64,000 nucleotides of DNA from a virus. The stretch lies in the IMG/VR virus record IMGVR_UViG_3300028654_000012, positions 52,674 to 116,673 of that record, one strand, 5' to 3'. A model generated the notes under the pieces. It was not told the DNA's origin. It saw only the letters and a program-made list of their open reading frames with translations, and made no database searches. Position 1 is the first letter of the stretch. The number at the start of each line of letters is the position of its first letter. The position numbers were made by a program, and so were the translations under genes. Of the stretch, positions 41,598-59,575 are shown piece after piece.

Positions 41598-42708
41598 CCC
41601 ATTATCAAAGAAAGAGTTCTACAAGACAGCTGACGTAGGAGATAGCGATTTCTCCTATGAGGAGCTAGGTCAACCGCCCGCTACCCCTCCAAAAGAGCAG
41701 ACTCCTCCCACGGCAAAGGAAGAACCAAAAAAAGAAGCTCCTAAAGAAGAGGAGCCAAAACCAGAGCCCAAGAAAGAGGAAGCGCCTAAGAAAGAAGAGA
41801 AGGGTAATCACCCTCACGTCGATAAGGTCAATGGAAATCCGGGGGCCTACTGGATCCCTAACATGCAGGGATTCGAGGCATCTGCTCTGGATGCTATTAA
41901 GACAGGTGGGACCGTCTTCAAAGGAAGCGTTGCTTTCCAGGGAGACGATTGGGCGGATAACGGGGAGATGGAGATCTATCTAAACCGTGGTCCTCATAAT
42001 AAACTACACGTATTACTCAATCCTCAAGGCTTCATAGATGAAGTCTCTCGAGTTGCCGAGAAGTACGACGCTGTTGCTAAGACTGAATCAGAAGGTCACG
42101 TATTCCATCCTCGTAGATGCATCCCTTTCGTACTAGAGAATATAGGTAAGAGAATTGTTGACATCTTAGGTAGTAAGCTTCGTGACGTAGGAGTGAAGTC
42201 AGGCTTAGACTTTAAGATGAAAGATTCTGCTCCCTACGCAACAGCTGTTGCAGAAGGTAGAGCTTTACTTTCTCAGGTATCCAGAGAGCTGTCAGATAAG
42301 AACAAAGAAGAAGCCAAAGCTCCTAAGACTCGTGTAAAGAAACTTGATACAGATGGTATTCTCGAGAAGTTCTTTAACGAACTACCCGACGCTGACTGGG
42401 AAGTACATGAATCTAAGACCTTAGGTATTAAAACCAAGACAACCTCTTTACCTCCTGAGAAGTACGCTCCTATCAAAGAAGTACTAGATGGACTTCAGGT
42501 ACCTATGGGAAAAGTAGGACCTTACCAGTTTGAAAAGAGACAGGACGGGAACCTTCTAGTTATAGACACTAATGCCTATAGGTATTCGGGATGGGTAGGA
42601 CCGGAGTTAACACGGCTATCCGAATTGGTGGGAGACGATCTAAGTAAGAACGCTAGCGCTGCTATAGCGGGTTTGACAAGTCGCTTCCTTTCCCCAAAAG
42701 TAAAATAA
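41578..42708 (+). CDS. Hypothetical protein with Pro/Glu/Lys-rich N-terminus
   Basis: A 376-residue protein with three tandem ATGs at the start (41578, 41581, 41584). Residues 30-85 are a PKKEE-rich disordered stretch; the rest is a mixed alpha/beta region of unknown family. FYKTADVG near the N-terminus matches the K-x-A motif of neighbouring large proteins. Its last 47 bases overlap the end of the first - strand gene, tail to tail. Confidence 0.62.
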   Translation: MMMHNPNPLSKKEFYKTADVGDSDFSYEELGQPPATPPKEQTPPTAKEEPKKEAPKEEEPKPEPKKEEAPKKEEKGNHPHVDKVNGNPGAYWIPNMQGFEASALDAIKTGGTVFKGSVAFQGDDWADNGEMEIYLNRGPHNKLHVLLNPQGFIDEVSRVAEKYDAVAKTESEGHVFHPRRCIPFVLENIGKRIVDILGSKLRDVGVKSGLDFKMKDSAPYATAVAEGRALLSQVSRELSDKNKEEAKAPKTRVKKLDTDGILEKFFNELPDADWEVHESKTLGIKTKTTSLPPEKYAPIKEVLDGLQVPMGKVGPYQFEKRQDGNLLVIDTNAYRYSGWVGPELTRLSELVGDDLSKNASAAIAGLTSRFLSPKVK

Positions 42709-43156
42709 GATCAAGAGCATTCATATCTTGATCGCAGTTCTCTGCTACTCTATAAAAATCTCTAGCGGTCCTCGCTAGCTCGACTTCCAATCGAAGTGTT
42801 GCCTGAGGAGTACTAATAACATTGACGTTCCCTAATGTTCCGTAGGGCGACTCCTGGGAGGTATTCATTTCTAGATAGACTACTTCCATTGTAGAATCTA
42901 CTTTATTTATTTCAGGACTGAGATATTCAGATCTATATAGGTGTATAGATCCGGTGTAGGTAGGGATGCCACTCCAGCCTTTGTAATTAGGAAGGCCGTT
43001 CCACGCTCTCGGGTACGCTCTCCTCACTACGTTGAGAGCTATCTTGAACAGCAGAGGGTTGTGCGGTCCCACTATCTGTACTAGATAATGATTCGCTTCC
43101 TTGAACATTCTTAGCTTTAGAGGTGTTTCTTGGACGTCTACTTCCTTCAATTTCAT
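42662..43156 (-). CDS. Hypothetical protein at convergent junction
   Basis: A 164-residue protein of mixed composition (Tyr-rich middle, helical C-terminus). Its first 57 codons overlap the gene before it in another frame by 170 bases, and its end overlaps the + strand gene. Either the long overlap is real, or the two - strand ORFs are one gene joined by a frameshift. No family is recognised. Confidence 0.5.
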   Translation of the reverse strand: MKLKEVDVQETPLKLRMFKEANHYLVQIVGPHNPLLFKIALNVVRRAYPRAWNGLPNYKGWSGIPTYTGSIHLYRSEYLSPEINKVDSTMEVVYLEMNTSQESPYGTLGNVNVISTPQATLRLEVELARTARDFYRVAENCDQDMNALDLILLLGKGSDLSNPL

Positions 43157-43409
43157 CGGGCGCTCTCACAAAGTAATCCAGATTCTCTTCCCAAACGTAT
43201 TCTTTAGAAAGGGATACCTCTAAGGTATCTTTATAAACTTTACTTACCTTTCTAGGTGAAGTTAGAAGTTTAGCATCCTCTACGGGTGCTCCTGCAGAAA
43301 GAAAGCTTCTAAGTAGACGCAATGTCTCAGCGTCCGCCTTAGCCAGGAAGTCTACGACTTCCTTTAGAGTTCCAATCGGAACTACTACATCTCCCTTCTT
43401 AAGCGCCAT
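42987..43409 (-). CDS. Hypothetical protein with Ser-rich overlap tail
   Basis: A 140-residue ORF. Residues 1-90 look like a normal folded domain (KKGDVVVPIGTLKEVV, a possible small barrel). The last 50 or so residues are Ser/Glu/Gln-rich and are read from DNA that the next ORF uses in another frame, so the tail may be an artefact or the genes may be joined by frameshifting. It overlaps the preceding gene by 11 bases. Confidence 0.5.
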   Translation of the reverse strand: MALKKGDVVVPIGTLKEVVDFLAKADAETLRLLRSFLSAGAPVEDAKLLTSPRKVSKVYKDTLEVSLSKEYVWEENLDYFVRAPDEIEGSRRPRNTSKAKNVQGSESLSSTDSGTAQPSAVQDSSQRSEESVPESVERPS

Positions 43410-43716
43410 TCTTAGGCTCCCCTTCTGCTTCCTTCTTAGACAAAGGCTGAGCTACTACCTTCTGTCCGGGCTGTAACGTACCCTTCGCTAAGGCAAGATC
43501 CTGTAGCTTCTTAACGAAGGCGTTGAAAGCCCCTTCAGAGATCCTGTTGTTCTCTTTTAGCTCTCGTACCCGCCGCATTACAGTCTCTAATCCGAACGTA
43601 GAGTCAGCTACCATCGCTAGCATCTTAGCGACGTCAGGAGCGTTCATATTCATGATAGCATACATCAAATCTTTGTCCGCACCAGCTGTTACAGTCTTTT
43701 CAGTATCTTCTTCCAT
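43399..43716 (-). CDS. Hypothetical helical protein
   Basis: A 105-residue protein, helical in the middle (about 20-75), with a Lys/Glu/Gly-rich disordered tail. Overlaps both neighbours (28 bases upstream, 11 downstream), as is usual in this arm. No family is recognised. Confidence 0.6.
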   Translation of the reverse strand: MEEDTEKTVTAGADKDLMYAIMNMNAPDVAKMLAMVADSTFGLETVMRRVRELKENNRISEGAFNAFVKKLQDLALAKGTLQPGQKVVAQPLSKKEAEGEPKNGA

Positions 43717-43976
43717 GGGTTTATTCCTACGTGCGAGATATCAAAATCATTTCCTAGGACGACTTCGATTATACTACCATCTTTAAGTATGCTATAGTTT
43801 CTCTTAGGGAGAATATCTACCTTACATAATACAATAGAGTTTGCCCAATCTAATCTATATAAATCCTGGAGGGAAGTCCTTAAGACCTCACCTCCAGGAG
43901 TTATCAGATAATTATAACGACTATAGTCAGGAGGATCTATCGCTCCTACTATATTAAGCCACTTTGTTTGGTTCAT
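43689..43976 (-). CDS. Hypothetical 95-residue protein
   Basis: A mixed protein with a probable beta-rich core (NYLITPGGEVLRT, YSILKDGSIIEVVLG). Its start overlaps the end of the RuvB-like gene by 23 bases. No family is recognised. Confidence 0.6.
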   Translation of the reverse strand: MNQTKWLNIVGAIDPPDYSRYNYLITPGGEVLRTSLQDLYRLDWANSIVLCKVDILPKRNYSILKDGSIIEVVLGNDFDISHVGINPWKKILKRL

Positions 43977-44871
43977 GAGATTCTACAAACTTAATCCCTT
44001 GTTCAGTTAAGTATCTTCCTTTCGGACCGCGCATTAGCAAGCCTATATTAATAAGATGAGGCTCTCTCAGGGATTCAATTGTTTCTGAATCTTCACCTAA
44101 GACGTTCGAAAGAGAATCAATACCTACAGGTCTATTCTTAAATATCTTTAGAATAGTTGACATCACTTTACGATCTTGCCTGTCCAATCCGTTTTCGTCT
44201 ACGCCAATATTCTTAAAACAAGCTAAGACATTTGTCAACGTAATAAAGTTTTCCGTTGCATAATCTCTTGTTCTAAGTAGATACTGGTTCGCTAATCTAG
44301 GAGTCCCTCTACTTCTCTTAGCAATTTCGTTAATTGCTTCAGCTTGAATCTGAAAGTTTAGCTTTCCTGCCGACCGAGCTATGATAGTATTAAGCTCAGC
44401 TAGAGAATACGTAGTTAGATACTCTATGATTGTAAAGCGATCTCTGAAGGGTCTTGATAGACTTCCTTCTTTAGTTGTCGCACCAATCAAAGTAAAGATA
44501 CATAGCTTATTACCCTTCCAAGTAAAATCCTCCATCGCAGCATACAAGGATTCCTCAATAGAAGACTTAAGCGAATGTACTTCGTCTATAAAGACGATAT
44601 CTCCTGACTTTACGTTAGCAAACACACTATCTAGTTCATCTATACTCTCAATGTTAGGGCCAATTAGTTCGTATATATTAACGTTTAACTCCTTAGCTAT
44701 TACCCTTGCTAAAGAAGTTTTACCCGTTCCTGGCGGTCCCGAAAAGAGAATATGGCCCAGAGACATATCCGACCGTCTCAAGGTTCCTTCGATGCATACC
44801 TTAATGTTTTGTTTTACAACGTCTTGGCCAATATAAGAATCTATACTTTCTGGCCGTAATGAATTGCTCAA
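43954..44871 (-). CDS. ruvB: RuvB-like Holliday-junction helicase
   Basis: A 305-residue AAA+ ATPase close to bacterial RuvB: LRPESIDSYIGQ at the N-terminus, Walker A GPPGTGKT (45-52), Walker B IVFIDEVH (92-99), sensor IGATT (129-133), RPFRDRF with the arginine finger (139-145), RGTPRLAN sensor 2 and a winged-helix end. It would drive branch migration; no RuvA or RuvC is seen here, though the NinG-like protein may cut junctions. TTG start with GGAG five bases upstream. RuvB in phage is uncommon. Confidence 0.9.
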   Translation of the reverse strand: MSNSLRPESIDSYIGQDVVKQNIKVCIEGTLRRSDMSLGHILFSGPPGTGKTSLARVIAKELNVNIYELIGPNIESIDELDSVFANVKSGDIVFIDEVHSLKSSIEESLYAAMEDFTWKGNKLCIFTLIGATTKEGSLSRPFRDRFTIIEYLTTYSLAELNTIIARSAGKLNFQIQAEAINEIAKRSRGTPRLANQYLLRTRDYATENFITLTNVLACFKNIGVDENGLDRQDRKVMSTILKIFKNRPVGIDSLSNVLGEDSETIESLREPHLINIGLLMRGPKGRYLTEQGIKFVESHEPNKVA

Positions 44872-44881
44872 TAGTACTCCC

Positions 44882-45076
44882 TTACTGTTTTGGTATTAAT
44901 AACCCTGGCTCGTTGTTAGGCGACACAACTTTACCGGAGAAGTCAGTAGTACCTCCCTTTGAGGCTTTACCAAGAACTTTACCCTTGGTATCCGAGATGG
45001 TCTCTTCATCACCATCAGTATCTTTACGAGCAATACGTCTACCGTAAAAGTCAACAATCCATTTTTCTTTTTTCAT
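44882..45076 (-). CDS. Hypothetical 64-residue protein
   Basis: A charged, Gly/Lys/Asp-rich protein, probably small beta-rich (KWIVDFYGRRIARKD start). It is joined by TAATG to the gene before it. No family is recognised. Confidence 0.55.
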   Translation of the reverse strand: MKKEKWIVDFYGRRIARKDTDGDEETISDTKGKVLGKASKGGTTDFSGKVVSPNNEPGLLIPKQ

Positions 45077-45333
45077 TAGATTGAAAGAATAGTAGCAATA
45101 GCTTCCTTTACCTGGCTTACTGCTAGATCTAAAGACCCTGCAGTATGATCTACATAAAGTCTTTTAACAGCCGGATGGTTAGGCGTAAAGCCATTATCTT
45201 CTAGACCAGCAATTCTTAGAAGCTTCCAAACAACTGAACCGTCATTATTACGAGAGACTGAAACAGTCCATAGAATATTATCAGTTCCCTTGAGATTACT
45301 AACTTCTATATTAGTCCATGTAGGCGCGCTCAT
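45076..45333 (-). CDS. Hypothetical 85-residue protein
   Basis: A small alpha/beta protein with a beta-rich first half (WTNIEVSNLKG, WTVSVSRNNDGS) and a helical end. CGGAGA precedes the ATG, and a TATA-like element lies just upstream, so it may head a transcription unit. No family is recognised. Confidence 0.6.
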   Translation of the reverse strand: MSAPTWTNIEVSNLKGTDNILWTVSVSRNNDGSVVWKLLRIAGLEDNGFTPNHPAVKRLYVDHTAGSLDLAVSQVKEAIATILSI

Positions 45334-45345
45334 TTATATCTCCGC

Positions 45346-45361
45346 TATATTTATTATACGT
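45346..45361 (-). promoter_or_regulatory. AT-rich -10-like element, minus strand
   Basis: Read on the minus strand, ACGTATAATAAATATA lies 13-28 bases upstream of the 85-residue gene, in a 33-base gap after the nucleotidyltransferase stop. It resembles the TATAA cores found before + strand units. A promoter is plausible but unproven. Confidence 0.35.
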
Positions 45362-45366
45362 TTTAT

Positions 45367-46155
45367 TTAAGCTTTTGTTGCTAGACCGAACTTATCTTTA
45401 AGGATATCTACACATAGCTTTTCTACTTTATCGGCAGGAGCTTTTTCTGGAAGAGGAGACTTTTCATAGGCTTGATGTGTCTCTTCAAACAGTTGCTCTG
45501 CCATCTCTTTAACTTGGTCTAGGGTATACTTGCCATCCTTAATATCTAAATACAACTGAAAGTCTGGCCGATATACTTGTAGCTTACCATCTGCTAACGT
45601 TTCTTTAGCAGTGTTAAGAAGCCTGATCATATGAGATGCGTTCTTAGTATCGTACCCATGGGCAGTAACTAACTGCTTACGCTTAGCACCCATATACCCA
45701 TTTGTAGCTGCCGTAGTCATCTTCTTCATCTGATCATGGGCATAACCCGTAAACGTGTTATGGATCTGCTTTGACATAAACATGTCACGGTTGTCGATTA
45801 GAAGCTGGCCAAGTTTACTTACATGAAGATAATCTTCCGGTCTCAACCAGAGAAGGTTAAGTACGTTAGGGTTATTTCCCCCAAGCAGAAAGATGGCCTT
45901 ACGCATTTCATACATCACTACATCCCACTCGTCTTCAAAGAAGTCATGAGTCTCAGTCTGCTTATGACCAAGATAATGCTCTAAGGGAGCTACGAATAGT
46001 CCCATGATATCGATATCATCGATAGAATTAGGATGAGAGTTAGGTCGATAAGTACCATGAACTACGGAACCCCTAAAGGCAACAAGCTCAGAGTCCTGGT
46101 ACTTCTTCCACCAGTTTGTAGCGGTATGATCTTTAACAGTTAGGGTAGTTGTCAT
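45367..46155 (-). CDS. Pol-beta-superfamily nucleotidyltransferase (YcgL/COG3541-like)
   Basis: A 262-residue protein. FRGSVVHGT (27-35) and DDIDIMG (46-52) form the GS...DxD motif of the nucleotidyltransferase fold; the later helical part matches the COG3541 group (LWLRPEDY, GYAHDQMKKM). These proteins probably transfer nucleotides to RNA, protein or small molecules; no substrate is evident. Phages with this gene are known, and some relatives repair or modify RNA. It overlaps the small LCC-family gene upstream by 23 bases. Confidence 0.75.
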   Translation of the reverse strand: MTTTLTVKDHTATNWWKKYQDSELVAFRGSVVHGTYRPNSHPNSIDDIDIMGLFVAPLEHYLGHKQTETHDFFEDEWDVVMYEMRKAIFLLGGNNPNVLNLLWLRPEDYLHVSKLGQLLIDNRDMFMSKQIHNTFTGYAHDQMKKMTTAATNGYMGAKRKQLVTAHGYDTKNASHMIRLLNTAKETLADGKLQVYRPDFQLYLDIKDGKYTLDQVKEMAEQLFEETHQAYEKSPLPEKAPADKVEKLCVDILKDKFGLATKA

Positions 46156-46315
46156 AAAAGAATCTTATAGATCCATCACATTTAGGTCTGTCAGTACGAT
46201 GAACTGATCTAGAGAAAGGATTGGCAAGCTGGCAAGACTCACATAGCTGCCAGTCACATCGGTCGCACTTAGCTCGGGGAGTGTTAAGAACACAACAAAG
46301 TTTATTAATACTCAC
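46133..46315 (-). CDS. LCC-family small cysteine-rich protein (b)
   Basis: A 60-residue protein starting at a GTG (46315), which gives MSINKLCCVL like its relatives; an ATG at 46336 would add seven residues. CDRC, four residues, CESC follow. The tail has several basic and aromatic residues and ends in Cys. It is third of three family members lying in a row. Function unknown; zinc binding is likely. Confidence 0.65.
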   Translation of the reverse strand: MSINKLCCVLNTPRAKCDRCDWQLCESCQLANPFSRSVHRTDRPKCDGSIRFFYDNYPNC

Positions 46316-46466
46316 GAGGTTGACATCTCCATCCACTATGCTTAGTGGCAGTATGGTGATCGTTTATTTTAAAAGCTATACGCCAGCATTCCAAACATAG
46401 GGAGTAGTTATCACAATCCATACACCAATATGAAGGGTTAATTAGACAGGCTAGGCAGACTTCCAT
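46305..46466 (-). CDS. LCC-family small cysteine-rich protein (c)
   Basis: A 53-residue protein joined to protein (d) by TAATG. It keeps the pattern CLAC-LINP, then CMDC, five residues, CLEC W, and shares a C-terminal HSGWR with the HCGWR of (d). The first Cys pair is shifted (CLAC instead of LCC). Clear tandem paralogue of (d). Confidence 0.65.
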   Translation of the reverse strand: MEVCLACLINPSYWCMDCDNYSLCLECWRIAFKINDHHTATKHSGWRCQPREY

Positions 46467-46624
46467 TATTTATAAACTCTCCAACCGCAGTGCCGGGTCT
46501 TCATGTAATGAGGAGTATATAAGTTGCTGTGGTTTGATCGCCAGCAGGGGTTACATTTTATATTCTCATCACAGTCAAAACAGACGTATGCTGGGTTGAG
46601 AAGACAGCAGAGTTTAGGTTCCAT
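46466..46624 (-). CDS. LCC-family small cysteine-rich protein (d)
   Basis: A 52-residue protein: KLCCLLNPAY, CFDC, five residues, CNPCW, then a basic His-rich tail ending HCGWRVYK. It begins in a TAATG overlap with the methyltransferase stop. The line-up with (c) is residue for residue in the core, which supports a true duplication. Confidence 0.68.
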   Translation of the reverse strand: MEPKLCCLLNPAYVCFDCDENIKCNPCWRSNHSNLYTPHYMKTRHCGWRVYK

Positions 46625-47163
46625 TACTTTAATGCAGTGAATACAAAGTGAGGAGGAAGATTACGTACTTCCCACTGGACATCTACCTGACTAAATCTAT
46701 CTTTCATTAAAGGAATCAGATGAGGAGTTACCTGATAGGCAACAAAACGTCCATCTTTATTAAGACTTCGCCAAGTCTTATTTAATAGCTCTTCTCTTTC
46801 GGGCTTATCAAAAAACGCGAAAGGGACGCCTGAGACGATGGAATCTACTCCAGAGATTTGATGATACGCCAGAATCTTATCAATCTCCCTCACATCTCCA
46901 TTGAATACCTTTAATCGGGGATCGGTTAAGGACTTCAACTCGCTAAACAGGTCTGTATTAAATTCAATGGCCAGAAGAGTAGCATCGGGACTCATTTGTT
47001 TTAGAATCTCTCGGGTCATCACACCACGAGCTGCACCATACTCCACAATCGTTTTTGCTTGGGAGAGGTTCATGGAGTCGACAGATCTCTGGACGAGATA
47101 CTTGCTAGAAGGGATTACAGATGCGACTTTCAGATCGTTCCAAAAGGCCTTTACATAACTCAT
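46624..47163 (-). CDS. Phospholipid N-methyltransferase-like SAM methyltransferase
   Basis: A 179-residue class I methyltransferase. VEYGAARG (40-47) is motif I, with E67 in IEFN as motif II; VIPSSKYLVQRSV (16-28) and SGVPF (111-115) are those of the COG3963 (PmtA-like) and rRNA dimethylase-like group. Motif I normally reads ELGPGTG; here GAARG keeps two glycines. PmtA methylates phosphatidylethanolamine. Membrane lipid modification by a phage would be unusual; a nucleic-acid substrate is the alternative because KsgA/Erm enzymes share the fold. Confidence 0.7.
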   Translation of the reverse strand: MSYVKAFWNDLKVASVIPSSKYLVQRSVDSMNLSQAKTIVEYGAARGVMTREILKQMSPDATLLAIEFNTDLFSELKSLTDPRLKVFNGDVREIDKILAYHQISGVDSIVSGVPFAFFDKPEREELLNKTWRSLNKDGRFVAYQVTPHLIPLMKDRFSQVDVQWEVRNLPPHFVFTALK

Positions 47164-47165
47164 AG

Positions 47166-47456
47166 TTAATTTCCAAAGCTATTCTTATCTTGAGCACAAT
47201 CTAAATCACATCCACAAGTAGGAGGATGTGATTGTCCTTCACGCCAACCACTTTTCTCGTTCTCTTCTTTGACCCAACAGGGGTAACAAAGCTTTAGCCG
47301 GTTGATAGGTACATTCTTATCACAACGAATGCACTTACCTCCTTCTGGAGGCTTACGAGATCTCTTTTTAAGATCCTCGAGGTCTTCTTCCTTTTCGTCT
47401 TCAGGAACGACCTCTTCTTTAACTTCCTCAGCGGGAAGTACTTCTTGTTCACTCAT
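47166..47456 (-). CDS. Acidic protein with C-terminal zinc fingers
   Basis: A 96-residue protein. The N-terminal 35 residues are very acidic (Glu/Asp/Val). From about 40 come CIRC and CYPCW, then CGCDLDC: probably two zinc sites. The acid tail plus zinc finger layout suggests a protein-DNA or protein-protein adaptor. It starts inside the end of the preceding gene (AATGAGTGA). No family is recognised. Confidence 0.58.
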   Translation of the reverse strand: MSEQEVLPAEEVKEEVVPEDEKEEDLEDLKKRSRKPPEGGKCIRCDKNVPINRLKLCYPCWVKEENEKSGWREGQSHPPTCGCDLDCAQDKNSFGN

Positions 47457-47703
47457 TTGGTAGTACCGTTAATAGATGTCGCCTGTTACCTTGATAGGCA
47501 GGTGTACTCATTACAGCTTCTATAAAGTGACCTTTCCATTCAACAAGACATCTTTGAACATGATCCTTGTGCCCGTAGAAGTAATTCCACTCTAAAGTAT
47601 TCAGAGCCTCTTCTAGATCGATAAGCTCTTCTTCAGTACAAGTTATCTGATAACGTTCAAGTAGTCTCTGATGTACATGCTGAGCATGCCTAATTCGGGT
47701 CAT
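47449..47703 (-). CDS. Small protein with HAxxxxxRLxxRY motif
   Basis: An 84-residue protein; the ATG at 47703 is chosen over upstream ones because it leaves a 14-base overlap and starts at the conserved HAQHVHQRLLERY. A later beta segment ends in LLTVLP. The protein at 57459 has a similar layout (LKRAQQRY, then YDKQRHSIATFLP), so these two may be distant paralogues. Function unknown. Confidence 0.6.
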   Translation of the reverse strand: MTRIRHAQHVHQRLLERYQITCTEEELIDLEEALNTLEWNYFYGHKDHVQRCLVEWKGHFIEAVMSTPAYQGNRRHLLTVLPNE

Positions 47704-48355
47704 CTTTCTTATCGTGTTCTTTTGCATACTGTTCAGCGGCCTTCTCTCTATCATTAGGAGAACCATGCCAGGTTAGTTCACAGACTAAATTATTATAGAC
47801 TTCAAGCAATGAAGGGTTATACGACTCAAGCTCTTCAGATTCGATAGTAATAATCTTACCATCGAGTAGCATATTAGTCTCTACCTTGTGCTTGATAGCA
47901 ACTGGATAGCCCTTGATAAGGTTAAGAGGAAGCATTGTTAGGTCGTACGTAATCTTATTACCCTTCTTGTCAAATCCAGTACCGTGAAAGAAGTCAACGA
48001 TCTCTACGGAAGGCTTAACGACCTTCTTAGACTTCTTTCTACCCTTACGAGGTGTAGAACCGTCTTTAACAATAATCAGCTTCTCTAGTTCAAGAACTTT
48101 AAAGGGAGGCATCTTCTTTACAACCAAAGGAGGTAATGCTACCTCTTCGAGGTGTTCATCAAAGCGCCAAAGGATTAAATCGTAGATAGGAGGATAGGCC
48201 TTTAAAACTTCTTCTAATGTAATACCGTCCTCTAAACGCAAAGGCACGCTGGAGAAGTTATTTAGCTCGCTTTTGGTAATGACAGATAAATAGTTATGGT
48301 TCTCATCCCGAGCTTCAAAGGTACCGTTCTTATTTAACTTGATATACTCAATCAT
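47690..48355 (-). CDS. Hypothetical protein with basic linker
   Basis: A 221-residue protein; the ATG at 48355 lies in an ATGA overlap with the small gene before it and is preferred to an upstream ATG at 48388. Residues about 1-95 and 130-200 look folded; between them lies RKGRKKSKK, a basic linker. No family is recognised. Confidence 0.6.
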   Translation of the reverse strand: MIEYIKLNKNGTFEARDENHNYLSVITKSELNNFSSVPLRLEDGITLEEVLKAYPPIYDLILWRFDEHLEEVALPPLVVKKMPPFKVLELEKLIIVKDGSTPRKGRKKSKKVVKPSVEIVDFFHGTGFDKKGNKITYDLTMLPLNLIKGYPVAIKHKVETNMLLDGKIITIESEELESYNPSLLEVYNNLVCELTWHGSPNDREKAAEQYAKEHDKKDDPN

Positions 48356-48480
48356 GGCCAGATCCTTGGTACTGTACGTACAGTCCACTTCGGATGGTCT
48401 TTCATTAGCTTATCAGCTTCCTCTTTAGAAGAAACGATAGCTATGACCTCTCCCTTCTCATCACTTACAGAGAGTACCAT
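48352..48480 (-). CDS. 42-residue microprotein
   Basis: A 42-codon ORF between two genes, one base after the preceding stop and joined by ATGA to the next. It has a short beta hairpin-like start (MVLSVSDEKGEVIAIV), a charged helix and a basic end. The fit in the gene chain supports it. Function unknown. Confidence 0.5.
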   Translation of the reverse strand: MVLSVSDEKGEVIAIVSSKEEADKLMKDHPKWTVRTVPRIWP

Positions 48481-48481
48481 A

Positions 48482-48706
48482 TTATTTCTTTAACCTTACT
48501 ACCCTACCACCTTTGTTTCTAGAACCCGCTTTAAGGGCATCCTCAAGTTCCATATCTAATGGATTATGCTGAATAGCATTATTAGCTAATAATCTAATAC
48601 TACCATACCATTTCTTAAGGTCTTCAATAGAATCTGTTTCAGGGCATGACTCGGCTATAATCTTAAGCGCGAGTTCGTAATGGTCTAAAATATCTTCTTC
48701 TTTCAT
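48482..48706 (-). CDS. Hypothetical 74-residue helical protein
   Basis: The ATG at 48706 is in an ATGA overlap with the LCC-family gene before it, and replaces a longer reading from 48730. The protein is helical with Lys/Arg-rich end (GGRVVRLKK). No family is recognised. Confidence 0.58.
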   Translation of the reverse strand: MKEEDILDHYELALKIIAESCPETDSIEDLKKWYGSIRLLANNAIQHNPLDMELEDALKAGSRNKGGRVVRLKK

Positions 48707-48837
48707 ATTCGCTTCATGTACTGCCCGCAAACTTCACACGTAGGTTGTGGGGAGCCGTGCATAGGACAATTATCGTTAGGTAAATCTGCTAGATGACAAA
48801 TACAACAAAGCCACTCTTTGTGTTCATGGAGAATCAT
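48703..48837 (-). CDS. LCC-family small cysteine-rich protein (e)
   Basis: A 44-residue protein with WLCCIC at 9-14 and CEVCG near the end. It is joined by ATGA on both sides. The spacing between cysteine pairs differs from the core family, so membership is looser. Zinc binding is likely. Confidence 0.55.
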   Translation of the reverse strand: MILHEHKEWLCCICHLADLPNDNCPMHGSPQPTCEVCGQYMKRI

Positions 48838-49451
48838 TCGATTATCTTTACACTCGGCCATAGACAGTCGAGGTCAGCTCCTATACGTCCACCTGTTGCC
48901 CACTTACCGAGTCTATGGCATCGTACACAGAACTTAGTAGGATCATCCTCAGGAAATTCACATTGCTGGATAGGAATACCGTGCATAGCGTTATACTTTC
49001 GAACTAAGTCTTCCCGCCTATCGCTAATGCTACCTCCCTCATTTGACTGAGGTCCACCTGGCAACATAGCTCTGTTATCCTTCCAGATGATCTCTTGACC
49101 ATTAAATAAAGAGCGTTCGATTTCTTTCTCTTGGAGACCGTACCATCTTTCAAACAGGATCTTACCTGAATCGGCAAGAGGCTGAAGCATGGCCTTGGCC
49201 CTATAAAAATCGGCTCCCTTATCTTTCCATCGGGAAATCAGAGATGGTTCAGGATCATGGCCTCTTATAATAGCTTCATAGGCGACTAAAGTATCCGGAC
49301 CACACTGTTGGTAGATGGGGAGGATCTTAGGAATGTCGTCGCCATTTACTTCTCCAGCGTCGGCAGATGCCCAGTAGAAAGTATCATTAAGGTTAGTTAC
49401 TATCTTAAAAGCATCGCCAAGTATACGTTTATACGCTTCTAACTCAGTCAT
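48834..49451 (-). CDS. Hypothetical protein with C-terminal CxxC
   Basis: A 205-residue protein. The ATG at 49451 has AAGGAA upstream and is preferred to a start 30 bases earlier. Residues 1-150 are helical with several Trp and Tyr; CVRCH near 183 may bind metal. It is first after an 86-base gap with a TATA-like element, so it may head a unit. No family is recognised. Confidence 0.6.
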   Translation of the reverse strand: MTELEAYKRILGDAFKIVTNLNDTFYWASADAGEVNGDDIPKILPIYQQCGPDTLVAYEAIIRGHDPEPSLISRWKDKGADFYRAKAMLQPLADSGKILFERWYGLQEKEIERSLFNGQEIIWKDNRAMLPGGPQSNEGGSISDRREDLVRKYNAMHGIPIQQCEFPEDDPTKFCVRCHRLGKWATGGRIGADLDCLWPSVKIIE

Positions 49452-49490
49452 AAATGCGCATTCCTTTGCTTTGAATCCCAAACTAGCGTC

Positions 49491-49503
49491 TTAGTATAAT
49501 ACA
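49491..49503 (-). promoter_or_regulatory. AT-rich -10-like element, minus strand
   Basis: Read on the minus strand, TGTATTATACTAA lies about 40 bases before the ATG at 49451, in the gap after the thioredoxin gene. A TATAAT-type core is present, and no matching -35 is seen at the usual distance. Tentative promoter. Confidence 0.35.
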
Positions 49504-49536
49504 CTTCTCAACGCTTGATGAATCGCATTGTCGCTT

Positions 49537-49848
49537 CTAAAGGTTGTCCAGAATCTTCTTAAGGTCCTCTTTAGTTTTCAAACCAATAGACTGAGCGACT
49601 ACCTTACCATCTTTAAAGATGAGGACCGTAGGAATGCTCATAATCTTATGATCAGTCACTACCCTAAACTGTTCATCAGTATTAATCTTAGTGAACTTAA
49701 CTTTACCAGCATAGCTTGTCTCTAGATCCTCTAAGATAGGAGACAGAGCTCTGCAGGGTCCACACCAGGGCGCCCAAAAATCTACTAGAGTAGGAAGGGG
49801 CTCTTGGAGTACTTCTTTTTCAAAAGAGTCATCAGTTAGTTCTACCAT
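49537..49848 (-). CDS. trxA: Thioredoxin
   Basis: A 103-residue thioredoxin with canonical active site WCGPC (28-32), cis-Pro P73 in SIPT and the FKDGK end. It is one base after the papain-like protease gene. It could keep that protease's Cys reduced, support ribonucleotide reduction in the host, or act in the replisome, as host thioredoxin does for T7. The fold is certain; the role is open. Confidence 0.94.
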   Translation of the reverse strand: MVELTDDSFEKEVLQEPLPTLVDFWAPWCGPCRALSPILEDLETSYAGKVKFTKINTDEQFRVVTDHKIMSIPTVLIFKDGKVVAQSIGLKTKEDLKKILDNL

Positions 49849-49849
49849 T

Positions 49850-50716
49850 TTACTTCCTCAGAGTCCAGAAGTCATTTGCTAAGCCTGGATTAGTCATGTA
49901 CGCATAAGGCATATAGAAGTATCCTTTATCGCCCCAGTCAGTGCCCCAGCTATTACGAACGATAAACACTTGCCGCTTATCATCATAGCCTACGCACATA
50001 ACAGCGTGACCACCTTGTTCAACATCTCGTACCTGGGGTAAAGGCATCAGCCCAGTTGCAGCTACCTTAGCACTTTCAAATGAAGCATAGACAGTAAATC
50101 CAAACACAAAGGGAAACCCTTGGGCCAAACAGCTCTTGAGTGCTTGAACATCTCTTCCATTTAAGGACTGGTAACTACTAATCTTATGATTCAGTGCTTC
50201 AGTATAGCTTGCTTGAGGAGGGACATGAAAAGCAAAAGCTACATTGTAAGGCCAAGTAGTTTCAGAGCAAGCTCCTACGGTAGCTAAAGATTTAATACCA
50301 TCACGTAACTGGGCACCATTATCTTCAGAAGTATCTCCTTCAATTACTCTCTCATTCCAATAGATAAACAATCTACTAAACGGAGTAAAGCCGGGTAGGC
50401 TGAATTCTTCAGGGTCACTCTTATCACCCTCAGCCTGCTCTAGTAACTCTAAAAATCCTAGAGCCCCTGCCAGGGAGTTAGCTGTACACGAACCTAAGTC
50501 ACCTTGATTTACAATCGGAGGGCACTTAGATCTTAGGTCAACTGAAGCAGGTAGTTGTCCTGGAGTATAGGTAAACTTTAAGTCTCTCGCATCAGGTACA
50601 TCTCGTTTCCAATTGTATTTGCGCTTAATTAATACTATAGCATCTTCAGTTAGATTTTTTACTAACCAAATAGCAAGAACTGCGACAGTCGTATAAGCTA
50701 ATATTGTTAGATCCAT
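49850..50716 (-). CDS. Papain-like (C1A) cysteine protease with N-terminal membrane anchor
   Basis: A 288-residue protein. Residues 5-20 are a hydrophobic anchor. The catalytic core is complete: oxyanion Gln71 and Cys77 in NQGDLGSCTANS, His237 in GGHAVMCVGYDD and Asn255 in RNSWGTDWGDKGYF. There is a short pro-like segment (RDVPDARDLKF) but no long pro-domain, as in viral and bacterial C1A members. Phage-encoded C1A enzymes are rare; they may cut envelope or peptidoglycan-linked proteins. It sits between thioredoxin and ligase. Confidence 0.9.
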   Translation of the reverse strand: MDLTILAYTTVAVLAIWLVKNLTEDAIVLIKRKYNWKRDVPDARDLKFTYTPGQLPASVDLRSKCPPIVNQGDLGSCTANSLAGALGFLELLEQAEGDKSDPEEFSLPGFTPFSRLFIYWNERVIEGDTSEDNGAQLRDGIKSLATVGACSETTWPYNVAFAFHVPPQASYTEALNHKISSYQSLNGRDVQALKSCLAQGFPFVFGFTVYASFESAKVAATGLMPLPQVRDVEQGGHAVMCVGYDDKRQVFIVRNSWGTDWGDKGYFYMPYAYMTNPGLANDFWTLRK

Positions 50717-51829
50717 TTATTCATCCCTCAGTGCCTTCCAGATAGGGAATCTTAACGATCCATCTGGAGTGTAATTTTGAAATTGTACAGTAGCCATCTT
50801 ACCAATAAAGTTCTTACGATTCTGCCACATCTCCGCCTTCTCCTCTAAAGTTACAGCAGGAGAAGCTTTAAACTGACGCTTAGTGCCATCGTTTAGTTCA
50901 CAGAAGAAGGCCCCTACACATCCCATTAGCTTACCGCTACCCTCTTCTACGTCTACGATCTTAAATTCAGCATCTTGGAAGGTCTTAACTTTTAGTAAGC
51001 CAGAGCTCCGCTTATTCTCATAGAGGCCCTTCTCATTACGGTACATACAGCCCTCATAGCCCCTATCAATACAATCCATCTGGTAGGCTTCTAAAGCTTC
51101 CCGAGATTCCACTCTAATAGTTTCTACAGGTACGCAGTACGAAGCTTTCCGTAGGAGACTCAGAGGAGTTGTACGATCGAAATAGGTGCCTTCGGCTACC
51201 ACATCGTAGACATGGTACTCTACTAAGATATGATCAGGATGTACATCATCTCTCTTGATAAGAGATGTAATTCTATTAAAGTCCTTTTTAAACTTATGGT
51301 TATAAAGTTCACCATCAAGAACAATGTTCTTCTTAGAGGCGAACACCTTTTCAATCTCGGCTACGATATGAGGAAGGGCAGTATACTCTTTTTGAGTACG
51401 AGAGTATAATCTTACTTTACCATCTTTCATTATGGCGATACATCTAAGTCCATCTAACTTGGGCTGTGCTGATGCGGGGAAGACGACATACTTCTCCTTA
51501 TCTTCAATTCTGTGAGCGAGCATAGGTTCTACAGCATCTAAGGTGTTCTTAGTAGAAGCAGCGAGCTTAATATCTTCTACATACCCTTCTTTCAGCTTAC
51601 CATCAAAAGACTGCTGAGCTTCTGCCTGAGCCTGGGTTTCCGGAGTCGTTGCATTAGAGCGACCCAGATTCTTTCCAGCCTTGACTACATCCGTAGTAGT
51701 CTGAAGCTTACCGTCCTTCAGACCATAGACGGTAGTGACAGCATTACCTGAGACTGAGATAGTCCACTGTTGGATTTTTCCCTTAGAAGTCTGCTTATAC
51801 AACGTAGGAAACTTATTCATAGTAATCAT
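50717..51829 (-). CDS. lig: ATP-dependent DNA ligase with WGR domain
   Basis: A 370-residue ligase. Residues 10-75 look like a WGR domain (WTISVSGNAVTTVYG, then GKNLGRSNATTPETQAQ). The nucleotidyltransferase core has adenylation Lys124 in PKLDGLR, LDGELY (171-176), YEGCMYR (258-264) and LLKVK (278-282). The OB domain follows. It seals nicks during replication and repair. WGR fusions recur in some phage ligases and in PARP proteins, where they bind DNA. A second ATG lies nine bases in. Confidence 0.92.
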   Translation of the reverse strand: MITMNKFPTLYKQTSKGKIQQWTISVSGNAVTTVYGLKDGKLQTTTDVVKAGKNLGRSNATTPETQAQAEAQQSFDGKLKEGYVEDIKLAASTKNTLDAVEPMLAHRIEDKEKYVVFPASAQPKLDGLRCIAIMKDGKVRLYSRTQKEYTALPHIVAEIEKVFASKKNIVLDGELYNHKFKKDFNRITSLIKRDDVHPDHILVEYHVYDVVAEGTYFDRTTPLSLLRKASYCVPVETIRVESREALEAYQMDCIDRGYEGCMYRNEKGLYENKRSSGLLKVKTFQDAEFKIVDVEEGSGKLMGCVGAFFCELNDGTKRQFKASPAVTLEEKAEMWQNRKNFIGKMATVQFQNYTPDGSLRFPIWKALRDE

Positions 51830-52065
51830 TTAGTTTTTATATTCCACACAGTATATATAGATAAAGGCAAACCGTTTTTCTTTTCGGGCCAAAGTTCTAT
51901 CTTTGTTTCAGAACACATCGCCGAATCATCTAGCCCTAATATATGGAAGTTTCTAGTTTCAGAAGGGGAAGCGAGACGGACTTGAAAACAATGTTCACAT
52001 TCCTGGAAGCCACACGCTCTGCAGTCGTAACAAGGCTGTAAAGTACAGCAGAGTTTATTAGTCAT
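51826..52065 (-). CDS. LCC-family small cysteine-rich protein (f)
   Basis: A 79-residue protein: NKLCCTLQP, CRAC, four residues, CEHC, then a longer tail without further zinc pairs. Core spacing equals that of (b) and (i). It overlaps the ligase start by four bases. Function unknown. Confidence 0.66.
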   Translation of the reverse strand: MTNKLCCTLQPCYDCRACGFQECEHCFQVRLASPSETRNFHILGLDDSAMCSETKIELWPEKKNGLPLSIYTVWNIKTK

Positions 52066-52073
52066 TACGCCTC

Positions 52074-52817
52074 TTAGGTTAAGATTACAGGTCCTGTAGC
52101 TGTGATAGCTACGGTATGTTCGAAATGGGCTGACAGACTATTGTCTGTCGATACAACTGTCCACCCGTCTTTAAGAATTCTAAAACCACCTAGCCCGAGA
52201 AGAGCCATAGGTTCGATAGCTAGAACCATTCCTTCTTCAATTAGTTCTCCCGTATGAGGAAGACCTACATTACTTATATAAGGACGTTCATGTAATTCTT
52301 TACCAATTCCATGACCTCCAAATTCAGGTATGAGTGCTAGGCCATGAAACTCTGCTTCTATTTGAATAGCGTTTGAAATATCTCCAATATGGTTACCTGG
52401 TTTAGCTTCCGCTATCCCTGCCATAAGAGCACTCTCTGTACCTTTAAGTAGTCGATCTACTGCGGGGTCCACCCGTTGACCCACGACAAAGGTAATAGCT
52501 GAGTCTGCGTTATACCCTTCTACAGTAGCTGCTAGATCTAAACTTACAAGATCTCCATTGTTAATCTTTCGATTACCTGGAACGCCATGGATAATTTCTT
52601 CATTGACAGAAATGCAAATAGATCCAGGAAATCCTTTGTAGCCTAGAAGAACAGGAGTTGCGTTAAATAGTTTTAGTAGTTCACGAGTTCTAAAGTCTAG
52701 ATCTCGAGTAGTCATCCCAACTTTGGTATCCTGATGTAGAAGATCTAAAGTAGTGTGGACTACTACCCCCGCCCTTACAATCTTTTCAATTTCATCAGGC
52801 GATTTAATTAGTCCCAT
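52074..52817 (-). CDS. map: Methionine aminopeptidase, type I
   Basis: A 247-residue metalloprotease with all metal ligands of E. coli MAP: D94, D105, H169, E202, E233, plus H77 in the active site. Length matches the bacterial type Ia form without N-terminal extension. It removes the initiator Met after deformylation. A phage copy could favour phage proteins or alter host ones. With the ClpS-like gene in the same arm it may touch N-terminal signals. It overlaps the next gene by 14 bases. Confidence 0.93.
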   Translation of the reverse strand: MGLIKSPDEIEKIVRAGVVVHTTLDLLHQDTKVGMTTRDLDFRTRELLKLFNATPVLLGYKGFPGSICISVNEEIIHGVPGNRKINNGDLVSLDLAATVEGYNADSAITFVVGQRVDPAVDRLLKGTESALMAGIAEAKPGNHIGDISNAIQIEAEFHGLALIPEFGGHGIGKELHERPYISNVGLPHTGELIEEGMVLAIEPMALLGLGGFRILKDGWTVVSTDNSLSAHFEHTVAITATGPVILT

Positions 52818-53295
52818 TCATAGACTCCATTAGTTTTAAATAGAAGGCCAACTCAGGTCTATGGACTGATTCGTCACTCTTATCATAACGATTCTGTAGA
52901 CTCTTATATACCCGATCAAACTCTTCTTTAGGAGCACCATGAAGATCATCTACCATAGTAGATCTACTATCGGGAGATACTTTAGATTTGTCCATAGTAG
53001 CAAACTTCTTAGACAATCTTTCCCGAAAAGCTTTAATAATCTCATCCCTACTTTCTAAGTCAGCTAGCCTAGCTTTATCTTTTAAAATTGTTCGCTGCCC
53101 ACTAAATCCCATTCGAGTGGCCGAAAGAAGATTTAGAACTCTCCAAACTTTATTAACATCTTCCTGGTCCTCAAGATAATCACTGAGTCTAGTAATACTC
53201 TTCTCAGTCGTATCTAAGGTGGAGAAGTCCATAGATGTCCTAAGAGACTGCCATTTAAAATTATATAAGACCAGCTTAAAGGGGTCTAAGCTCAC
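52804..53295 (-). CDS. Hypothetical charged helical protein
   Basis: A 163-residue protein rich in Lys, Asp, Arg and Ser, almost wholly helical. GTG start in a GTGA overlap with the preceding stop. No family is recognised. Confidence 0.58.
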   Translation of the reverse strand: MSLDPFKLVLYNFKWQSLRTSMDFSTLDTTEKSITRLSDYLEDQEDVNKVWRVLNLLSATRMGFSGQRTILKDKARLADLESRDEIIKAFRERLSKKFATMDKSKVSPDSRSTMVDDLHGAPKEEFDRVYKSLQNRYDKSDESVHRPELAFYLKLMESMNGTN

Positions 53296-53576
53296 AGCAT
53301 CATCTCTCTTCCTATAGAGACAGGAATTTTAAATGACTTGGTGAATTCGTCATAACAAGGTTCACAAAGATGAAATTCATGGACCTCTGTATCTTTTGGA
53401 GACCCGTATCCCCAAGAATGATTAGCTTCAAAATAGGAAACTCCCCAAGCTACAGGTAGTCCATGATTATCTCTTTCAGCGGTTTCTGCGTTCCAAATTG
53501 TAGTGCTACACTTGTTACAAGTTAATTTAGAAGGATAATCTATTTCTAGTCGCTGCATTACTTTAGTCTCTTTCAT
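53292..53576 (-). CDS. Small zinc-ribbon protein with His-rich loop
   Basis: A 94-residue protein: CNKC at about 19-22 and CEPC at about 71-74 frame an aromatic/His loop (SYFEANHSWGYG). A zinc ribbon is likely. ATG with AGGAAG upstream; it overlaps the small membrane protein before it. Confidence 0.6.
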   Translation of the reverse strand: MKETKVMQRLEIDYPSKLTCNKCSTTIWNAETAERDNHGLPVAWGVSYFEANHSWGYGSPKDTEVHEFHLCEPCYDEFTKSFKIPVSIGREMML

Positions 53577-53736
53577 TCAAATACTTCCTATAGATCAAAT
53601 ATGAAAATCGTAGGGTAATCCCTGCTTGAATTAATACAAGTATTACGAATGTGTTGGAGGGCTCAATTGCATATACAGTAATGTATATCGCTAAAAGCAG
53701 CCAGAGAGGTAGGATAGGAGGTAGGATTTTACGCAC
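53563..53736 (-). CDS. 57-residue membrane protein, two helices
   Basis: A 57-codon ORF with a GTG start directly after the preceding stop. Two hydrophobic helices (about 9-24 and 30-40) are separated by a short polar loop and followed by a basic end. A small holin-like or membrane-adaptor role is possible but unsupported by any motif. Its end overlaps the zinc-ribbon gene by 14 bases. Confidence 0.5.
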   Translation of the reverse strand: MRKILPPILPLWLLLAIYITVYAIEPSNTFVILVLIQAGITLRFSYLIYRKYLNERD

Positions 53737-53737
53737 T

Positions 53738-53881
53738 TTAGTTTCGGAGGGGTTGTACTATTGCTTGAAAACAATGATACAGTCCGGCGGCTAATAGAGC
53801 TACGACGGCCATGCCCACGATCACTACGGCTATTAGCTGCGGAGGAACTGCATTCAACATTTTTGAGAAGAATGATTTCAT
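53738..53881 (-). CDS. 47-residue single-pass membrane protein
   Basis: A 47-codon ORF with a single hydrophobic helix (about 16-33) between short polar ends. It precedes the two-helix protein by one base and follows the SLOG gene. Tandem small membrane proteins are common in lysis and membrane-modifying cassettes of phages; no lysis enzyme is nearby. Confidence 0.5.
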   Translation of the reverse strand: MKSFFSKMLNAVPPQLIAVVIVGMAVVALLAAGLYHCFQAIVQPLRN

Positions 53882-53911
53882 GAAGAGCCTGCCTATGTAT
53901 AAGAAACATCC

Positions 53912-54256
53912 CTATAATATAATCTTCAAAGGCTTACCTGCCTTGCGTGTTAAGTCAATAGTACTGGCCGTTCCTTTCGATTCTTTGTCCCAAAAAGCCA
54001 CTACCTCATCAGCTGTTTCTACGATTAAGGCATTACGTATTGGGCCGGCGGCTAGACCAAACGTTTTCCAGTCGGGAAGAAAAATTTCTGTAGGCATACC
54101 TCTCTCTAAGGCAGCTGCTTCCGCAATCTGGTCGACACCTAATGCCCGCCCACTCACTATGACAGTATCTATAGGGAGAGAGTAGACATATTCTTTAACC
54201 AGAGATAGCTCTCTAAACTTACGACTACCTACGATAGCAACCTTCTTAGGTACCAT
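53912..54256 (-). CDS. SLOG/DUF2493-type Rossmann protein
   Basis: A 114-residue protein with the SLOG-fold layout: VAIVGSRKF at the start, TVIVSGRALGVDQIAEAAA with the nucleotide-binding Gly pattern, then the strand EIFLPDWK, and ADEVVAFWD. Related to DprA/YspA-type proteins that may bind nucleotide-derived ligands. In phages this family is common and uncharacterised. It follows the gene at 54259 by two bases. Confidence 0.78.
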   Translation of the reverse strand: MVPKKVAIVGSRKFRELSLVKEYVYSLPIDTVIVSGRALGVDQIAEAAALERGMPTEIFLPDWKTFGLAAGPIRNALIVETADEVVAFWDKESKGTASTIDLTRKAGKPLKIIL

Positions 54257-54258
54257 AC

Positions 54259-54588
54259 TTAGCTCTTAGACTCCGCAGTTCTCCGACGCCGACGAGTTCT
54301 TGGAGTAGACTCTTCTTGTTTTTGCTCAGCCACCTTCTCGGTGTGTTCAAATACTTCGCCGTCGGCAAACACAGTTCTAGTCTTGTTGTCGGGATGAGGT
54401 GCAATATGGATACTCATAAACAGACCGAATGAATCAAAGACAGCAGTACTATGTCCTGGAGACGTCTGAGATAGCCACCGTATAATACATTCTCCGTCGC
54501 TAAATACACAGCCTTCTAATACTTTGCCAGAGCCGCTGATACCTGTTTCATCATCGAGTCTAAACAATTCGAACGTTCGTATAGGCAT
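54259..54588 (-). CDS. Conserved phage protein of a small beta-fold type
   Basis: A 109-residue protein. DDETGISGSGKVLEGCVF followed by IRWLSQT and TAVFDSFGLF is a pattern recalled from many phage and plasmid proteins of unknown function. The last 25 residues are Arg/Thr/Ser-rich and probably bind nucleic acid. Function unknown. Confidence 0.62.
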   Translation of the reverse strand: MPIRTFELFRLDDETGISGSGKVLEGCVFSDGECIIRWLSQTSPGHSTAVFDSFGLFMSIHIAPHPDNKTRTVFADGEVFEHTEKVAEQKQEESTPRTRRRRRTAESKS

Positions 54589-54598
54589 AACAACTCCA

Positions 54599-54907
54599 TT
54601 ATTTAATAAACTTCAAAGCACGTTTAACTAAACCATCTCGATCAAAATCTAACATATCATCCCAGTACTTGTGAGGGATCATATTTTGAATCTCAGCAAG
54701 TAGGAAATCCTGTTCAGATCGGGACTTATCACTTAGATCCCACTTCTCCCTACCTCTTAGCAAGCACCTAGTCAGCTTATCCTTATCTTCCTTTTGAGTA
54801 CGAGTCTTCTTCCAAGTGTCATAAGAATCTTTAATTAAAAGACCTATGACAATAGTTAACCCGCTGCCAACAGTATTAGCAATCCACTTTAATGCGCTAG
54901 CAATCAT
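54599..54907 (-). CDS. Hypothetical protein with N-terminal membrane segment
   Basis: A 102-residue protein with a hydrophobic helix at about 5-25 (VGSGLTIVIGLLI), then a charged helical region. It could be a membrane-anchored adaptor or minor holin-like protein; no motif decides. It overlaps the IMPDH gene by four bases. Confidence 0.58.
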   Translation of the reverse strand: MIASALKWIANTVGSGLTIVIGLLIKDSYDTWKKTRTQKEDKDKLTRCLLRGREKWDLSDKSRSEQDFLLAEIQNMIPHKYWDDMLDFDRDGLVKRALKFIK

Positions 54908-56303: not shown

Positions 56304-56312
56304 AATAGTTCC

Positions 56313-57082: not shown

Positions 57083-57284
57083 TGAGAGTACCATCTATCA
57101 TAGATTGAATTACACCGGCCGTATCTTTACGTAACTGGTCTAGTCCGCAAGAGCAGACCCCTTTTAGTTTAAGGAAGTCACATTCGGGTTTATGTGTAAA
57201 GCCTACCAAGACCTTCTGCATAAGTGATACGAGATCACCTACTTTTAAAGTCTTAAGGTCAGGAGTTTTCGCCTTCTCTTCCAT
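57066..57284 (-). CDS. Hypothetical 72-residue protein with Cys pair
   Basis: Start taken at the ATG at 57284; an ATG at 57293 is possible. A small protein with LKVGDLVSLMQ near the start and CDFLKLKGVCSCG in the middle, a possible metal site. Overlaps its neighbours. Confidence 0.52.
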   Translation of the reverse strand: MEEKAKTPDLKTLKVGDLVSLMQKVLVGFTHKPECDFLKLKGVCSCGLDQLRKDTAGVIQSMIDGTLNDKKE

Positions 57285-59364: not shown

Positions 59365-59366
59365 AA

Positions 59367-59573: not shown

Positions 59574-59575
59574 AG

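What the first reader, a model, noticed from the sequence alone, without database searches (positions are those of the whole stretch)
46133..46624. Dispersed family of LCCxL small cysteine-rich proteins
Nine small proteins (8773, 46133, 46305, 46466, 48703, 51826, 60910, 63054, 63718) share a short core: [KW]LCCxL, then usually Pro, CxxC, four or five residues, Cxx[CH]. Most start directly at the LCC and lie between unrelated genes; one is on the + strand. Sharing of core spacing among (a), (b), (d), (f) and (i) is seen directly. I do not recognise a family for them. They look like an expanded phage zinc-finger set, perhaps modular adaptors to host proteins or regulators.
Basis: partly seen in the sequence, partly recalled or inferred. 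Interest (0 to 1): 0.75.

Follow-up and report, generated by a model that had tools for sequence, protein, structure and literature searches.

The report
Phage family of B-box-like zinc fingers
A little-known group of large phages carries dozens of different copies of one tiny, probably zinc-binding protein (up to about 60 in one genome), which makes up a quarter to nearly half of the small genes in one region and looks like a toolkit of protein-binding adaptors, probably for taking over the host cell.

Summary
Six of the nine listed ORFs (a, b, c, d, f, i) are clear members of one family. A seventh (g) is a divergent member. Two (48703, 63054) do not score and are rejected. The core is L-C-C-x-[LIV]-[NS]-P-x3-C-x2-C-x4/5-C-x2-[CH], then a variable tail that usually carries more His/Cys.

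The window is the right part of a 116.7-kb phage contig that ends inside an accessory block. In related IMG/VR phage contigs the family is hugely expanded: about 58-63 copies in a 210-kb contig, 46-51 in 54 kb, 19-20 in 27.6 kb, 20-22 in 39 kb. It makes up 25-44% of ORFs in those blocks.

Shuffled and reversed controls give no hit below E 0.05. Orthologue pairs show dN/dS 0.14-0.35. Position-4 and position-6 cysteines replace each other. No member was found in PHROGs, NCBIfam, PADLOC, 50,697 phage records, plasmids or 84,980 prokaryote genomes. Sub-threshold Pfam, PDB and Foldseek matches point to B-box/ZZ/RING cross-brace fingers.

Best reading: a new, hyper-expanded B-box-like zinc-finger family acting as diversified protein-protein adaptors, probably in host takeover. 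Fold is inferred; zinc binding and targets are untested.

The parts
8773..8982 (+). member a, 69 aa, WLCCTLTP...CxxC...CxxH; between a 168-aa ORF and queE
   Evidence: profile E 1.6e-12; orthologue with the same neighbours in G005 (56% identity, dN/dS about 0.35)
46133..46315 (-). member b, about 60 aa, GTG start, MSINKLCCVLNTP...
   Evidence: profile E 9.7e-12; start read from sequence
46305..46466 (-). member c, 53 aa, the C-L-x-C ligand variant (MEVCLACLINP...)
   Evidence: profile E 1.4e-12; sub-threshold Pfam ZZ_ADA2, ZZ and ANCHR-like B-box; AF2 model whose top Foldseek matches are B-boxes
46466..46624 (-). member d, 52 aa, MEPKLCCLLNP...; tandem neighbour of c (45% identical)
   Evidence: profile E 7.1e-14; mutual best hit with c
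51826..52065 (-). member f, 79 aa, MTNKLCCTLQP..., just upstream of a DNA ligase gene
   Evidence: profile E 2.7e-14; AF2 model, mean pLDDT 73
60910..61293 (-). member g, divergent: keeps pairs 1 and 3 (LCC...CxxC), lacks pair 2, long C-terminal part
   Evidence: profile E 0.0077, 6e-5; class of members without pair 2
63718..63894 (-). member i, 58 aa, MKKKLCCTLSP...; 106 bases from the contig end
   Evidence: profile E 4.1e-11
42700..64000 (-). left part of the minus-strand accessory block that carries the family; the contig stops inside it
   Evidence: tblastn synteny with G002, where the homologous block spans about 20-116 kb; block statistics

Best explanation
The ORFs are members of a phage-specific family of 50-100-residue proteins built on a B-box-like (RING/ZZ-class, cross-brace) finger, probably binding two zinc ions. 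Probable ligand pairs are C6/C7 (or C4/C7), C15/C18, C23/C26(H) and a His/Cys pair in the tail. A few members keep only pairs 1 and 3 and would bind one zinc. The fixed scaffold (L5, [LIV]9, N10-P11 and the ligands) holds a hypervariable surface and tail. Tandem duplication and rapid divergence in a co-directional accessory block, next to tRNA, RNA-repair and metabolic genes, have given each phage 20-60 different fingers. Most likely each binds a different protein (host enzymes, host defence proteins or phage proteins), so that the set works as a host-takeover and counter-defence toolkit. Shown: family, expansion, purifying selection, scaffold/surface pattern. Inferred: zinc binding, fold, protein binding, early expression. 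Not known: any target.
For: Family and scale. Controls. Selection on protein: orthologue dN/dS 0.19/1.29, 0.27/1.34, 0.42/1.18, 0.35/2.45; mixed TGT/TGC at the invariant cysteines and all six Leu codons. Metal site: 142 members xLCC, 9 CLxC, only 1 CLCC, i.e. one cysteine or the other; position 26 is C in 68 and H in 39 of 107; 97% of members with pair 2 have at least two C/H in the tail. Cross-brace: two orthologous members (G002 20910, G004 11508) lost pair 2 and have no C/H in the tail, keeping pairs 1 and 3. Fold class: weak Pfam hits to ANCHR-like B-box, ZZ, IBR, AN1, FYVE, RING, PDB sequence hits to TRIM28 B-box, FYVE, HERC2 ZZ, Foldseek ranks 1-4 PML B1-box x2, TRIM28 B1, ZFYVE19 B-box. 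Diverse surfaces: information content at most about 1.1 bits at nearly all non-scaffold columns, net charge -4 to +9. Duplication: 58 of 113 best hits in the same genome (31 expected), 16 within 2 kb (7 expected). Domain fusion to an FGE-sulfatase domain.
Against: No single fold or family match is significant: best Foldseek E 0.77, Pfam hits below gathering cut-offs, AF2 mean pLDDT only 68-73. The model of member f gave no meaningful fold match. No host is known, so no target can be named. More than half of the members are mildly basic (median net charge +2), which leaves nucleic-acid binding open for a subset.
Confidence: 0.55

Rival explanations
1. The fingers are nucleic-acid-binding regulators (transcription or translation factors), each copy tuned to a different site.
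For: Median net charge +2, 24% of members at +5 or more; many copies lie among tRNA genes in G001, G002 and G010.
Against: 19% of members are acidic at -2 or below and charge ranges widely. No conserved upstream DNA element that could be a shared operator was seen. The nearest fold class, B-box/ZZ, mainly binds proteins (established knowledge).
Confidence: 0.2
2. All members bind one common partner through the invariant LCCx[LIV]NP segment (for example host RNA polymerase, the ribosome or a phage hub protein) and bring different clients to it through their tails: a subunit-like adaptor set.
For: L5, [LIV]9, N10 and P11 are conserved beyond the metal ligands, while everything else varies. One copy is the N-terminal domain of an FGE-sulfatase-like protein and others carry long tails.
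Against: In a domain this small the conserved non-ligand residues may simply be the fold core. No common partner is known.
Confidence: 0.2
3. Metallothionein-like or cysteine-storage proteins with no specific partners; copy number itself is the function.
For: High cysteine content and high copy number.
Against: Fixed spacing, conserved non-cysteine residues and near-exclusive swap of C4 and C6 indicate a folded finger. Divergence among copies is far greater than a dosage effect needs (closest paralogue pairs mostly below 50% identity).
Confidence: 0.03
4. Chance grouping of unrelated Cys-rich ORFs, or a repeated DNA element that happens to be open.
For: Two of the nine ORFs in the finding are such chance inclusions (e, h).
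Against: Controls are empty; codons vary at invariant residues and dN/dS is low; orthologue with conserved neighbours.
Confidence: 0.01

Closest known systems
B-box zinc fingers (TRIM/PML B-box 1, ZFYVE19/ANCHR-like B-box PF22586, CONSTANS B-box)
   Same: Order and spacing of the first ligand pairs (C-x2-C, C-x2-C, C-x2-C/H, tail H/C); hairpin then helix in the AF2 models; top Foldseek matches.
   Different: First pair usually C6-C7 adjacent instead of C-x2-C; a fixed [LIV]NP after it; stand-alone, phage-encoded and hyper-expanded; below Pfam cut-offs.
ZZ-type zinc fingers (PF00569, PF25299 ZZ_ADA2)
   Same: C-x2-C...C-x2-C-x4/5-C-x2-C...H order, seen best in member c (E 0.0015).
   Different: Score below the gathering cut-off; no larger host protein around the finger.
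RING, IBR and FYVE fingers (cross-brace class)
   Same: Weak profile hits from several members.
   Different: No ubiquitin pathway is expected in a phage-infected bacterium; E2-binding features were not examined.
Small host-takeover genes of T4- and SPO1-like phages (general knowledge)
   Same: Many small early proteins packed in a co-directional block.
   Different: Those are mostly unrelated to each other; here one fold supplies 25-44% of the ORFs in the block.
Bacillus phage G (as a relative of the phage, not of the family)
   Same: Best terminase match among 50,697 phages, 30.6% over 89%.
   Different: No family member found in it or in any other record of that collection with two query members.

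Membership tests
B-box zinc finger (zf-B_box PF00643 / ANCHR-like PF22586) | score above the Pfam gathering cut-off | tested here: not met
   best sub-threshold E 0.00046 (ANCHR-like) in 87 members; window d 17 bits against a cut-off of 27
B-box zinc finger (zf-B_box PF00643 / ANCHR-like PF22586) | C-x2-[CH] first pair, then C-x2-C, C-x2-C, H/C pair | tested here: inconclusive
   pairs 2 and 3 met in 135 of 147; first pair is C-x2-C only in about 10, otherwise C-C; tail pair present but not at fixed spacing
B-box zinc finger (zf-B_box PF00643 / ANCHR-like PF22586) | fold | tested here: inconclusive
   AF2 model of c ranks PML, TRIM28 and ZFYVE19 B-boxes first, but E at least 0.77
B-box zinc finger (zf-B_box PF00643 / ANCHR-like PF22586) | binds two Zn2+ in a cross-brace | not testable with these tools
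   only indirect: co-loss of pair 2 and tail ligands in orthologous members
ZZ zinc finger (PF00569) | score above the Pfam gathering cut-off | tested here: not met
   member c 16.3 bits against 21.4
Any PHROG, NCBIfam or PADLOC family | a family matched by many members | tested here: not met
   single scattered weak hits only
The LCC family defined here | profile score below E 0.01 and LCC (or CLxC) core | tested here: met
   a, b, c, d, f, i clearly; g marginally; e and h fail
Anti-CRISPR / anti-defence proteins | inhibition of a host defence system | not tested
   no assay; no similarity to PADLOC proteins

The most novel reading that the evidence does not exclude
A clade of large phages runs host takeover and counter-defence with a single hyper-expanded B-box-like finger scaffold, 20-60 diversified copies per genome: a prokaryotic counterpart to the multigene effector families of eukaryotic parasites, in which one fold is diversified into dozens of binding specificities.
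Probability: 0.4. Interest if true: 0.9.

Novelty: new variant of a known kind. Interest (0 to 1): 0.78.

Why it matters
Large paralogous families of small proteins are typical of eukaryotic parasites, not of phages, whose early regions are usually made of unrelated small genes. One scaffold diversified into about 60 copies in a phage would be a natural library of small zinc-finger binders to bacterial proteins. It would also make the question 'what are the dozens of small early genes of large phages for?' directly testable by one family-wide screen. It further gives profile and motif handles to annotate about a quarter to nearly half of the otherwise nameless ORFs in these blocks.

Tried and rejected
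Members e (48703) and h (63054): rejected by profile score. Literature: searches for phage or jumbo-phage zinc-finger families, paralogous small genes and B-box in phages found nothing relevant; the library lacks most subscription papers. Genome scan of 84,980 species: nine pattern hits, none with an LCC-family ORF (low-complexity or out-of-frame matches). Wider W-C pattern in IMG/VR: only the known G003 contig added real members. L008/L022 (27-codon ORF, same stretch in two contigs) and L014, L029, L059: judged chance hits. Shared promoter or cassette element upstream of the genes: none found, only weak Shine-Dalgarno-like signal. Foldseek with the model of f: no useful match.

Full report
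WHAT IS IN THE WINDOW. The window is positions 52,674-116,673 of a 116,673-base IMG/VR virus record. Its genes mark it as a tailed-phage-type DNA virus: DNA polymerase A, RecA, PhoH- and helicase-like genes, and a RuvB-like ATPase. Of the nine ORFs named in the finding, a, b, c, d, f and i share the core L-C-C-x-[LIV]-x-P-x3-C-x2-C-x4/5-C-x2-[CH]. Member c has C-L-A-C in place of L-C-C, and member b has one extra residue before the proline. A profile built from them and their relatives accepts g marginally (E 0.0077) and rejects e and h.

IT IS NOT CHANCE. The strict core pattern occurs only in those six ORFs in the window and nowhere in the remaining 52.7 kb of the contig. Reversed or shuffled translations of the same frames give no profile hit below E = 0.05, against 124 real ones below 0.01. 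In orthologous pairs from different phages dN/dS is about 0.14-0.35. The invariant cysteines use both TGT and TGC, and the invariant leucine uses all six codons. Selection is therefore on the protein, not on a DNA repeat.

THE WINDOW SHOWS ONLY THE EDGE. A codon-level scan of IMG/VR and whole-record profile searches found the same family in related contigs: G002 (3300027807_000001, 210 kb) 58-63 copies, G003 (3300038416_000116, 54 kb) 46-51, G010 (3300033155_001115, 39 kb) 20-22, G001 (3300028654_000213, 27.6 kb) 19-20, and one or two in at least eight smaller or core-gene fragments. G003 has runs of 9 and 7 consecutive members. In a mechanical ORF count the family makes up 26%, 44%, 35% and 25% of ORFs in the blocks of G002, G003, G001 and G010, and 10% in the part of the block seen in our contig. 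Core genes of our phage are collinear with G002 in inverse order, and our left end matches G002 3-6 kb and G003 1-6 kb. Our contig therefore ends inside the homologue of G002's block (about 20-116 kb), and most of this phage's own copies are probably missing from the record. That last step is inference.

WHAT THE FAMILY LOOKS LIKE. In 107 members with exact spacing, only L5, C6, C7, [LIV]9, N/S10, P/T11, C15, C18, C23 and C/H26 are conserved. Nearly every other position carries about one bit or less. The first metal pair takes two forms: x-L-C-C in 142 members, C-L-x-C in 9, and both in only 1, as expected if one cysteine must be supplied from position 4 or position 6 but not both. Of the members, 135 have the second CxxC, and 97% of these have at least two further C/H in the tail. 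Members without it have fewer (mean 1.9 against 3.2), and the orthologous pair G002 20910 / G004 11508 has none while keeping pairs 1 and 3. This is the co-loss expected of a cross-brace in which pairs 1+3 and 2+4 each hold a zinc. Net charge runs from -4 to +9. Best hits lie in the same genome nearly twice as often as expected (58 against 31), and within 2 kb about twice as often (16 against 7), so tandem duplication continues. c and d in the window are such a pair.

FOLD. No library has the family: Pfam hits are all below curated cut-offs, and PHROGs, NCBIfam and PADLOC give only scattered weak hits. The weak hits agree with one another, however. In Pfam the most frequent are ANCHR-like B-box, IBR, AN1, ZZ_ADA2, FYVE and B-box. 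In PDB sequences they are TRIM28 B-box, FYVE and HERC2 ZZ. AF2 models of f (pLDDT 73) and c (pLDDT 68) agree on helix 5-9, a hairpin around C15-C18, and a helix after C23. For c, Foldseek ranks PML B-box 1 (two entries, TM up to 0.55), TRIM28 B-box 1 and ZFYVE19 B-box first, followed mostly by RING, UBR-box and B-box entries. The best E-value is only 0.77, so this is agreement of class, not proof. The f model gave no useful match.

WHERE IT OCCURS. No match in 50,697 phage records with two query members, none in plasmids with one, and no genuine member in the pattern scan of 84,980 prokaryote species. The family appears restricted to one poorly sampled phage lineage, whose terminase is most similar, distantly, to that of Bacillus phage G. 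The host is unknown. The literature library held nothing on such a family.

HOW IT PROBABLY WORKS. The block is co-directional. It also holds most tRNA genes of G002, tRNA nucleotidyltransferase, an RlaP-type RNA-repair enzyme, RuvB-like ATPase, DNA ligase, IMP dehydrogenase, a papain-like protease, methionine aminopeptidase and thioredoxin, a mix typical of host-takeover regions. B-box-like domains generally bind proteins (established knowledge). A fixed zinc scaffold, a hypervariable surface and tail, mixed charge and continuing duplication fit a set of adaptors or inhibitors, each with its own protein partner. A shared partner at the LCCx[LIV]NP segment is a serious variant of this idea. 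Nucleic-acid binding cannot be excluded for the basic members. Family, expansion and selection are shown. Zinc, fold and especially function are inferred.

LIMITS. ORF and start calls are mechanical. Copy numbers depend on the threshold. Records are fragments. No coordinates of the predicted models could be inspected for ligand geometry.

Noticed in passing
window 46133-46624 and 45367-46155; G002 95393-95635 and 95904-96677: In both phages a family member lies directly upstream of an RlaP-type (RNA-repair nucleotidyltransferase) gene; given the density of the family this may be chance.
   Followed up: partly
G003 41981-42703 (L039:1987-2703): The finger is fused to a complete FGE-sulfatase (SUMF1-like) domain (Pfam E 1.9e-43).
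   Followed up: partly
G002 103383-116053 (L047): 32 tRNA genes within 13 kb, 36 in the bases read, covering most amino acids, interleaved with family genes; our contig has none in the bases held.
   Followed up: partly
L041 7028-7098 (G001): A tRNA with a CTA anticodon (called tRNA-Pyl by ARAGORN), a possible amber suppressor; recoding was not examined.
   Followed up: no
window 48703-48861 and 63054-63173: Two other small Cys-rich ORFs that are not family members; the first has a sub-threshold Vps36 NZF-like match (E 0.0011).
   Followed up: partly
G010 21352-21804 and G001 14805-15269: Multi-finger proteins: an AN1/B-box-like finger followed by an LCC-type finger in one chain.
   Followed up: no
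G002 79410-79826 and G010 19529-19969: The two share a C-terminal segment (PQGY...V...D.RPG...YH...) behind the finger, seen by eye, with no library match.
   Followed up: no
window 60473-60907: 144-aa Cys-rich protein conserved in G002 and G010 (37-38%) with no Pfam or PHROG match.
   Followed up: no
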